Source of the DNA: Clostridiales bacterium
Lineage (GTDB): Bacteria > Bacillota > Clostridia > Lachnospirales > WRAX01
Length of the DNA stretch: 34,346 nt
Direction of reading: 5' to 3'
Assembly (NCBI GenBank): GCA_031265685.1
Contig: JAISCI010000125.1
Span: 1-34,346 of the forward strand
The translations under genes and the position numbers were made by a program. Below are positions 10,646 to 12,678 of the stretch, piece by piece (the first letter of the stretch is position 1; every line of letters begins with the position of its first letter). The notes under the pieces are model-generated. The model was given only the letters and a program-made list of their open reading frames with translations, made no database searches and had not been told where the DNA came from.

Positions 10646-10698
10646 CGCGGTCTCCCTTTCGTCCGGACGTATTTTGGCGTCCCCAATATAACCGATTG

Positions 10699-10727
10699 AT
10701 TATATCATATGTTTTCCGGGGACGCAA
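10699..10727 (-). promoter_or_regulatory. Sigma-A type promoter for the rpmE operon
   Basis: The minus strand has TTGCGT, a 17-base spacer and TATAAT. It lies between the IS3 relic and rpmE and drives the translation-related block. Confidence 0.85.
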
Positions 10728-11169
10728 GAGGCAAATAGCGTGTTTACGCATTCGCTTCAGTGCGCCAAAGCCCGTGTGAAACGCCCCGAAGAACGATAAC
10801 CGACAGGAAGCGAAAAAGCGAAGAAAGAGGTACGCCTAACGCTTTTATTGTACGAGAAATACTCCGTCCGTGCTCCAGATAGTATTAGGCGGCTTGTTTC
10901 CGCTGCTCTCCTGTAAATTTCAATCTTGAATAGCCGAGGTCGTCATCGCCGCGCAGTCTGCCGGTATCTTTGAATTCCTTATACCAGTTATACAGTATAC
11001 CTCGTGACGGGTAACCAAGCTCTCGTATAACCGTCGCCATGTTCATGTCGTACTTGATGTAAAGTTGAACCGCTCTCATTCGCTCCTCGTAGGAATCATG
11101 GACTACCTCCTGTACTTTTTGGTCCAGGTTTTCGTCCGCACCCCCGGAGGTTAAATTTCTCCGCGCACG
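10728..11169. other. Intergenic stretch holding only IS debris
   Basis: Apart from the IS3-like relic, no intact gene or RNA is seen between the rpmE promoter and the toxin-like ORF. The segment 11099-11169 contains the putative IS end and a short CCCCCGGAGG-centred stretch. Confidence 0.5.
10800..11098 (-). pseudogene. IS3-like transposase OrfA relic with nonsense and start frameshift
   Basis: The open part (track ORF 10885-11079) encodes MRAVQLYIKYDMNMATVIRE, LGYPSRGILYNWYKEF and GEQRKQAA, a transposase helix-turn-helix of the IS3 OrfA kind. The same frame continues past a TAA with YYLEHGRSISRTIKALG, the second HTH of such proteins, and then decays. The frame is also open upstream (HDSYEER). 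A good AGGAGG site precedes an ATG at 11098, but that ATG is out of frame by one step and ends after 7 codons in an ATGA overlap. A likely terminal-repeat stretch (TGGACCAAAAAGTACA) lies beyond. So it is a dead copy carrying at least two lesions. Confidence 0.75.
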
Positions 11170-11943
11170 GTGTTAAATCATGAGCGCGGCATGCGTCGTC
11201 CATTGGTCGATGGTTGTGCCGGTCACGCCGCTGCTGCCGTCGGCGTAACCGCCGTTGGCCTTCGCCCTCACCCAGCGCTGGTATGCTGTATGGATCGCAT
11301 GGGACTGGCGTATGGGTATTGGGGCGAAGCCGCCATGATGGCCGGAGTGTACGGCGCGTCGGCGATGAGTATGCTGTATCCTGGCGGCGTGGATAGCAGG
11401 TCCGCGAGGGATTATAAGGATGCCGAGGTTGCGGTTGGGAATAACGCGCGAAACGAGGCATCTCTTGGCTATAAAGCTCCAACAGGCGGCGGAGGTTCTA
11501 CCGCGACATTTAACATCAACGGGAAAACTATAACCTTTGGTCATGGCGGACAACATTTGGAATGTACTGGGTTGTCCGTCGCGGATGTTAATCAAGCCAT
11601 CGCGAACCATGTTTCGCAGATAGATGTGCCAGTCAATATAATGACACCGTACTCTGTAACAGTGAACGGAATCTCAATTGAATACCGAGCCTATGGATTT
11701 TCGGATGGGAGGGTTAACATTGGAACATATAGTGTACACGCGCACGGTCTTTACGCCGATAAACTCATAGCTGTTACTGGTGGCATTATCGCTACCATTA
11801 CCGAAATTTACTCTGTACCCCCTCCCGAGAACGTCATAATAGCCTTTTTTATGGTTGCGGGCGTGGCAGTAGTGGGGATTGCCGCCGTTGTCAACGTCGT
11901 CAGTCTTTATGGGCAGGCGCGGAATTATTATATTTTGTTTTAA
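11170..11943 (+). CDS. Orphan polymorphic-toxin-like C-terminal module
   Basis: Not firmly identified. The 257-aa ORF opens with a GTG and a stretch unlike its neighbours, then reads like the end of a secreted Rhs/polymorphic protein: a small-residue region (YWGEAAMMAGVYGASAMSML), a linker (RNEASLGYKAPTGGGGS), and a compact domain with GHGGQHLECTGLSVADVNQA, then TVNGISIEYRAY and GRVNIGTYSVH. The HGxxHL...TGLS pattern resembles toxin tips found at Rhs ends. The tail (about 195-257) is hydrophobic, probably one or two membrane spans. No Rhs repeats or secretion signal precede it, and an IS3 relic lies directly upstream, so the N-terminal body may be lost. A small membrane gene starts 6 bases after the stop. 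The true start is uncertain; M38 or M41 is possible. Confidence 0.5.
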   Translation: MLNHERGMRRPLVDGCAGHAAAAVGVTAVGLRPHPALVCCMDRMGLAYGYWGEAAMMAGVYGASAMSMLYPGGVDSRSARDYKDAEVAVGNNARNEASLGYKAPTGGGGSTATFNINGKTITFGHGGQHLECTGLSVADVNQAIANHVSQIDVPVNIMTPYSVTVNGISIEYRAYGFSDGRVNIGTYSVHAHGLYADKLIAVTGGIIATITEIYSVPPPENVIIAFFMVAGVAVVGIAAVVNVVSLYGQARNYYILF

Positions 11944-11949
11944 CTTTGG

Positions 11950-12165
11950 GTGATTAGGATGCCGTCCGGTTGGTGGGTTGAACTCCCGCTTATAACCGCG
12001 TTTTTAGCGGTGATCTTTATTGAGTTGTATTGGCTGAGCCGCTCGTTTGTGTACAAAAAGATACCTTATGTAGGCACGTTCCGCCTGAGACTGCTTATCG
12101 GGATAGCTATCAATATTCTTTTCATCGCCATATGGGCGCTGTGTCGGTTCGTCCTGAAACTTTAA
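11950..12165 (+). CDS. Small two-span membrane protein, copy 1 (candidate immunity protein)
   Basis: This 71-aa (GTG) or 68-aa (ATG at 11959) protein has two hydrophobic spans (WVELPLITAFLAVIFIELYW and LLIGIAINILFIAIWALCRF) around a basic hinge (YKKIPYVGTFRLR). No family is recognised. It begins 6 bases after the toxin-like ORF, so the two are probably cotranscribed, the usual place for an immunity gene. A terminator follows. A related copy lies 300 bases downstream. The immunity role is inferred from position only. Confidence 0.55.
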   Translation: MIRMPSGWWVELPLITAFLAVIFIELYWLSRSFVYKKIPYVGTFRLRLLIGIAINILFIAIWALCRFVLKL

Positions 12166-12218
12166 CGCGTTCGCCGCCGTCGCTCCCCAGAGAACCGGGG
12201 GCGGCAGTATTTTTCAAT
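12068..12218 (+). repeat. Direct repeat copy 1 (membrane protein 3' end plus terminator)
   Basis: The stretch from TAGGCACGTTCCGC through the terminator to TTTTTCAAT is nearly repeated at 12500-12641. The copies differ by a few substitutions and by an 11-bp deletion in copy 2 just after CTTATCGGG. Confidence 0.85.
12172..12215 (+). terminator. Terminator after membrane protein copy 1
   Basis: GCCGCC...CCCC pairs with GGGGGCGGC across AGAGAACC and is followed by a T-rich run (TATTTTTC). It lies just after the copy 1 stop. Confidence 0.65.
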
Positions 12219-12271
12219 CCCGGCGGTTTCCTGGTTATCCATAAATATTTATAAAATTGACGGAAATTCAC

Positions 12272-12300
12272 TTGACTTATTCCGATAGGCGCGCTATTCT
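12272..12300 (+). promoter_or_regulatory. Promoter before membrane protein copy 2
   Basis: TTGACT, a 17-base spacer and TATTCT lie about 50 bases before the copy 2 start. So copy 2 can be transcribed apart from the toxin-like gene. Confidence 0.65.
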
Positions 12301-12499
12301 ATGCAAGAATTGGCAGTTGAGGTTCCGTTTACGACAGGATGGTTTTTATGAAGAGGTTTATCGGCGTTATCATGGCGTTTGTCCTCTCGATGCCATTTAT
12401 GCCCATATACGAGAGAGCGTTCCTGTACCTAGCGGTTTTCACGTTTGTCATATTGGCCGCGCTTCTTCATCAAACCTTTTACTGGTACAGCAAAAAGCC

Positions 12500-12641
12500 C
12501 CACATAGGCACGTTCCGCGTGAGACTGCTTATCGGGTATTCTCGCTGTCGCCATATGGGCGCTGTGTCGGTTTGTACTGAAACTTTAACGCGTTCGCCGC
12601 CGTCGCTCCCCAGAGAACCGGGGGCGGCGGTATTTTTCAAT
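12500..12641 (+). repeat. Direct repeat copy 2
   Basis: Partner of 12068-12218. It includes the hinge codons, the frameshift point and the second terminator. Confidence 0.85.
12594..12639 (+). terminator. Terminator after membrane protein copy 2
   Basis: Same stem as the copy 1 terminator (GCCGCC...CCCC with GGGGGCGGC) and a T-rich tail (TATTTTTC). It also faces the convergent radC gene. Confidence 0.6.
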
Positions 12642-12678
12642 AAACCATCTTCTTGACGTCAGCGCATTACGGTCTCCG

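What the first reader, a model, noticed from the sequence alone, without database searches (positions are those of the whole stretch)
11170..12656. Orphan toxin-like C-terminus followed by two related small membrane proteins
A domain with the HGxxHL...TGLS pattern of polymorphic toxin tips stands without an Rhs or CdiA body, directly beside an IS3 relic. Six bases downstream starts a 2-span membrane protein, and a paralogue with its own promoter follows. The order toxin, immunity, immunity paralogue is typical of displaced toxin tips. The hydrophobic tail of the toxin ORF and the membrane nature of the partners hint at a membrane-acting toxin, which would be unusual. Seen: ORFs, spacing, spans. 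Inferred: toxin and immunity roles.
Basis: partly seen in the sequence, partly recalled or inferred. Interest (0 to 1): 0.72.

Follow-up and report, generated by a model that had tools for sequence, protein, structure and literature searches.

The report
Decayed orphan bacterial RNase toxin tip
A cut-loose piece of an antibacterial, probably RNA-cutting toxin sits in a small inserted island of a Clostridia-type genome without its delivery body or its usual antidote gene, and the small membrane proteins behind it are probably not its antidote, so the locus looks like a worn-out spare cassette rather than a new weapon.

Summary
The toxin reading is right; the immunity reading is not supported. 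Residues ~113-189 of the 257-aa ORF match an unnamed toxin-tip family with no Pfam or NCBIfam model. I found nine relatives: three lie behind RHS sequence (Arthrobacter, Paraburkholderia, Acidobacteria), one beside an RHS core, one behind a PT-HINT pretoxin. A canonical member is predicted to have the BECR (RelE/CdiA-CT) ribonuclease fold. All nine are followed directly by a soluble DUF6984 gene, the likely cognate immunity. DUF6984 is absent from the window and from the whole assembly.

The window copy departs from the family: the invariant Arg of GHGxRH is Gln, the FWG segment is lost, and the usual stop is replaced by a ~68-aa hydrophobic tail not found elsewhere. The 'paralogue' is a recent duplicate of the 3' half of the 71-aa gene plus terminator, frameshifted by an 11-base deletion. 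A same-family genome has radC and rpmE ~20 bp apart, so the whole 2.03-kb region, with a stop-interrupted IS3 relic, is an insertion.

Best explanation: a decaying orphan tip of an undescribed BECR toxin family, beside unrelated or leftover two-span membrane proteins. A tail-plus-2TM ionophore-like module is not excluded (p ~0.1).

The parts
10646..12678 (.). Inserted island between rpmE and radC (2.03 kb, GC ~0.46-0.58, mostly below 0.50, against ~0.60 around it)
   Evidence: In same-family genome G006 (L219) radC and rpmE are adjacent, ~20 bp apart; GC profile
10775..10825 (+). Fragment of an interspersed repeat present in at least 10 other places of the genome
10822..11079 (-). IS3-type OrfA relic, reading frame interrupted by a stop (GEQRKQAA*YYLEHGRSISRTIKALG)
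   Evidence: NCBIfam IS3 E=0.0012, Pfam HTH_28 E=0.0044; translation
11170..11943 (+). 257-aa ORF that holds the orphan toxin tip; first ~100 residues of doubtful coding status
11470..11505 (+). Pre-toxin linker YKAPTGGGG, shared with the Clostridium clostridioforme relative (DYKAPEGGGG)
   Evidence: L114
11509..11736 (+). BECR-fold toxin domain of the unnamed family; the Arg found in all relatives is Gln at 11551-11553
   Evidence: profile match 103 bits; structure; deviations
11737..11940 (+). Hydrophobic C-terminal extension (one strong, one weak span) where all relatives end
   Evidence: no relatives found
11950..12165 (+). 71-aa two-span membrane protein of unknown family (GTG start; ATG at 11959 also possible)
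   Evidence: no convincing relatives in 295 order genomes, plasmids, phages, viral contigs
12164..12216 (+). Hairpin plus T-run after the 71-aa gene, possible terminator (fold not significantly better than shuffles); repeated at 12587-12639
12348..12585 (+). Second, frameshifted copy of the small membrane gene (11-base deletion at about 12537; the original frame resumes as GILAVAIWALCRFVLKL)

Best explanation
Residues ~113-189 are a displaced C-terminal tip of a polymorphic toxin. They belong to an unnamed family of BECR-fold ribonucleases, in which two N-terminal histidines (GHGxRH) and a C-terminal Thr (GTYY) probably cleave RNA by a metal-free, RNase A-like mechanism. In intact systems the tip is the end of an RHS or HINT-bearing secreted protein, and the DUF6984 protein encoded just downstream neutralises it in the producer. 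In the window only the tip and a piece of linker were carried, with IS debris, into the gap between rpmE and radC. Body and DUF6984 antidote are missing, the conserved Arg and FWG segment are gone, and the frame runs on into a hydrophobic extension. The copy is therefore most likely inactive or barely expressed: a relic or spare cassette. The two-span proteins are a separate gene and its broken duplicate, not the antidote of this tip. Shown: homology, contexts, DUF6984 linkage, insertion, frameshift. Inferred: RNase activity, immunity role of DUF6984, inactivity of this copy.
For: Eight relatives by motif scan, phmmer E 2e-9 to 3e-19, and a ninth by tblastn with relatives as query. RHS repeats or cores and PT-HINT upstream. 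DUF6984 directly downstream in 9 of 9, none in window or genome. Model of a relative: pLDDT 81, top PDB matches RelE (E 7e-3), HigB2 (prob 1.00) and two CDI toxin complexes. The window copy deviates at 5 of 25 conserved columns, including Arg 9/9 to Gln and a Gly 9/9 lost. All relatives stop a few residues after GTYY. Codon-position GC of the domain is flat (0.48/0.41/0.43) where four neighbouring genes have GC3 0.71-0.79. Empty site in G006.
Against: The window domain has no stop inside, keeps both His and the Thr, and gets a confident model (block means of pLDDT 92-97 over most of it), so it is not obviously dead. GC3 can also differ because the DNA is recently acquired. No PDB match reaches E<=0.001.
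Confidence: 0.68

Rival explanations
1. A working, re-armed module: the BECR-like domain now serves as carrier or entry part, the hydrophobic tail is a membrane-active (ionophore-like) toxin, and the two-span proteins are its immunity protein and a second copy, as in CDI ionophore systems.
For: CDI ionophore immunity proteins are 72-100 residues, very hydrophobic, two-helix hairpins (PMC11630599); the window protein is 71 aa with two spans. Imm17 and CdiI are other two-TM immunity types (PMC3482391). The tail is directly followed by the 71-aa gene, whose GC3 (0.61) is nearer the host's.
Against: Known ionophore domains are five-helix bundles; the tail is ~68 aa with two low-confidence helices. 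No relative of tail or 71-aa protein was found anywhere searched. The second copy is frameshifted. Similarity of the tail to geobacillin-26 is chance: 674 of 970 shuffles score as high.
Confidence: 0.12
2. An intact, active orphan RNase tip kept as a cassette for recombination onto a toxin body elsewhere in the genome, with the two-span protein as a non-homologous immunity protein that blocks uptake.
For: Recombination of bodies with standalone toxin cassettes is described for polymorphic toxins (PMC3482391). The linker YKAPTGGGG could serve as the recombination stretch. L118 shows a displaced core-plus-tip-plus-DUF6984 behind a full Rhs gene.
Against: No DUF6984 in the genome; invariant Arg lost, FWG lost, C-terminus extended; no second copy of the tip or of the DNA upstream of it in the genome. 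The assembly is 91% complete, so a body could be missed.
Confidence: 0.13
3. The ORF is a chance frame or assembly artefact.
For: Doubtful N-terminus, flat codon-position GC.
Against: Collinear homology to independent relatives including the linker.
Confidence: 0.03

Closest known systems
Ntox35 and other BECR-fold RNase toxin clades (Zhang et al. 2012, PMC3482391)
   Same: BECR fold; Ntox35 is described with two conserved N-terminal histidines (H, KH) and a conserved S/T in the C-terminal strand, the layout of this family (H, RH, T); RHS context
   Different: No member matches any Pfam toxin model at E<=1; partner is DUF6984, while no immunity partner is listed for Ntox35
Ntox41 (same paper)
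   Same: Listed motif [RK]H, [KR], [ST]xxP resembles RH, R and TYYP of several relatives; RHS and HINT contexts
   Different: Compared with a table row only, no model available to test; several relatives have TYYxP instead, and the window copy lacks [RK]H and the Pro
CdiA-CT EC3006 / Kp342 tRNases (PDB 6cp8, 6cp9)
   Same: Predicted fold match
   Different: No sequence similarity detected in the PDB search; different immunity proteins
CDI ionophore toxins with two-helix CdiI proteins (PMC11630599)
   Same: Small two-span protein next to an ORF with a hydrophobic C-terminus
   Different: No five-helix bundle, no CdiA body, no sequence relatives found

Membership tests
Polymorphic toxin tip | Domain found at the C-terminus of RHS/CdiA/HINT-bearing secreted proteins | tested here: met
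   L090 (RHS_repeat PF05593), L118 and L101 (RHS cores), L190 (PT-HINT)
Polymorphic toxin tip | Window copy attached to a delivery body | tested here: not met
   No body in the window; the tip is preceded by IS debris
Polymorphic toxin tip | Cognate immunity gene directly downstream | tested here: not met
   DUF6984 in 9 of 9 relatives, absent in window and genome
BECR-fold RNase | Helix followed by an antiparallel meander like RelE/CdiA-CT | tested here: met
   Models; Foldseek RelE, HigB2, CDI toxins, E 7e-3 to 0.3, so of moderate strength
BECR-fold RNase | RNase activity | not testable with these tools
   Needs a biochemical assay
Ntox35 | Match to the curated toxin model | tested here: not met
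   No Ntox model hit for any of nine members at E<=1 in Pfam
Imm17 / CdiI two-TM immunity | Match to a curated immunity model | tested here: not met
   No Pfam or NCBIfam family above cut-off for the 71-aa protein
Geobacillin-26 family | Significant profile match of the tail | tested here: not met
   16.6 bits against cut-off 40; with a profile built from members found here -1.5 bits, no better than shuffles

The most novel reading that the evidence does not exclude
An RNase-type toxin domain has lost its conserved arginine and been turned into the carrier of a new hydrophobic, membrane-acting toxin whose immunity is a two-span protein: a change of toxic mechanism within one toxin lineage, caught in an orphan cassette.
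Probability: 0.1. Interest if true: 0.65.

Novelty: new member of a known kind. Interest (0 to 1): 0.33.

Why it matters
The window copy itself is probably a relic. The useful result is the family: a BECR-type toxin tip without a Pfam or NCBIfam model, seen in Clostridia, Actinomycetes, Acidobacteria, Planctomycetes, Ignavibacteria and Burkholderiales. It is paired in every case seen with DUF6984, a domain of unknown function that no paper in the held library mentions and that can now be tested as an immunity protein. It also cautions against naming the nearest small ORF as immunity without looking at relatives.

Tried and rejected
Pfam, NCBIfam, PADLOC and PHROGs scans of the ORFs gave no family. 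Single-sequence searches of family, order and phylum genomes, plasmids, phages and viral contigs found no relatives; the weak hits L002-L010 were read and were chance. The first motif pattern gave nothing in viral contigs; the looser one gave 53 viral loci, none related. The geobacillin-26 link of the tail led to real members elsewhere in the order but failed a shuffle control. A search for remains of DUF6984 in all six frames of the window found nothing. An SLH-like minus-strand frame over 11180-11290 was seen but is not supported by any family hit. One script failed for a file reason and was rerun; another stopped on a too-short control peptide after printing the values used.

Full report
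Observation. Three details do not hold. The second membrane gene is a DNA duplicate of the 3' part of the first, terminator region included, with an 11-base deletion that shifts the frame. Its promoter-like site is no more than chance gives. The first ~100 residues of the toxin ORF have no detected homology and lie under long antisense frames.

Relatives. No family library knew the ORF, and searches with the single sequence found nothing real. I therefore scanned genome contigs for GHGxxHLxxTGL. Most hits were chance, but eight gave phmmer E-values of 2e-9 or better over the domain. A ninth, more distant one came from a Caballeronia plasmid by tblastn with relatives as query. The motif residues G, H, G, H, L, T, G, L are conserved in the first eight by construction of the search. 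The Arg between the histidines, the FWG segment and the C-terminal strand were not part of the pattern. In the sampled genomes of the window's own order and phylum no further member was found with the family profile.

Context of relatives. L090 is the end of a 1985-aa RHS protein, L118 and L101 follow RHS cores, L135 has RHS-core sequence just downstream, and L190 follows a PT-HINT domain. L118 is itself a displaced core-plus-tip behind a full Rhs gene. L114, the closest relative (47-49% identity), shares the linker YKAPxGGGG and also lies next to what reads as a transposase gene. In nine of nine cases the next gene, within about 30 bases or overlapping, is a DUF6984-type protein: three were checked against Pfam and the others by a profile built from the set. 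This linkage was not part of the search, so it is good evidence for a toxin-immunity pair.

Structure. A canonical member modelled at mean pLDDT 81; its best PDB matches are RelE, HigB2 and CDI toxin complexes, the BECR set. E-values are 7e-3 and weaker, so the fold call is moderate. It agrees with the layout of two N-terminal His plus a C-terminal S/T that PMC3482391 describes for the BECR clade Ntox35. The window domain itself models well (block means of pLDDT 92-97 for most of it), while the tail gives two low-confidence helices; the window model on its own gave less clear PDB matches, a CDI-system chain and HigB2 among the first three.

The window copy. Against the nine relatives it differs at five of 25 conserved columns: Arg to Gln between the histidines, two changes and a lost Gly in the FWG segment, and the terminal Pro. 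Leave-one-out gives 0-3 such changes for the eight close relatives and 11 for the distant plasmid one, so this is unusual but not extreme. Where relatives end, the window frame continues for 68 residues. DUF6984 is found neither in the window nor in the genome, which is 91% complete. The tail and the 71-aa protein have no convincing relatives in any collection searched. GC at third codon positions is 0.43 in the domain, 0.61 and 0.68 in the two membrane genes, and 0.71-0.79 in four other genes of the window. The membrane genes thus look more settled in the host than the toxin domain.

Island. In same-family genome G006 radC is followed by rpmE after about 20 bp; the window has 2033 bp there, of lower GC, with a stop-interrupted IS3 relic and a fragment of an interspersed repeat. 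Only one relative showed this gene order, so the empty site rests on one genome.

Mechanism. Established knowledge: BECR toxins cut RNA after delivery by a large secreted body, and most polymorphic-toxin immunity proteins are soluble and bind the toxin directly (PMC3482391, PMC12700104). Inference: this family does the same with DUF6984 as antidote. For the window copy the loss of body, antidote, Arg and normal C-terminus is best explained by decay after displacement. Lack of an antidote also argues that the domain is inactive or silent. The two-span proteins resemble in size and topology the immunity proteins of CDI ionophores (PMC11630599), so a membrane-toxin module cannot be excluded, but nothing beyond adjacency supports it.

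Verdict. Toxin tip: yes. Orphan: yes. Membrane proteins as its immunity: not supported. Membrane-acting toxin: not supported for the family, open for the tail.

Noticed in passing
window 10775-10825; L013-L022: An interspersed repeat (a ~50-base core, extending to 120-300 bases in other copies, TGTAAAACGTCCCGAAGAACGCAAACTGAC...) occurs in at least 10 other places of the genome, often near contig ends; nature unknown.
   Followed up: partly
L024-L029: Geobacillin-26 family proteins (NF035925) are fairly common in this order (10 of 146 genomes matched, 6 over cut-off); several are followed by a ~115-120-aa hydrophobic protein that could be their immunity protein.
   Followed up: partly
L118 1-4119: A full Rhs gene is followed by a displaced RHS-core fragment with this toxin tip and its DUF6984 gene: a clear example of an orphan cassette behind a main gene.
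   Followed up: no
L114 3-1172: A second, different toxin-like tip (HYGRHGDEVGA..., ends VSFGKQ) with a possible immunity gene at 753-1172 lies on the same small contig as the closest relative.
   Followed up: no
window 11173-11290, minus strand: A minus-strand frame reads WVRAKANGGYADGSSGVTG, reminiscent of an SLH-repeat piece; no family hit.
   Followed up: partly
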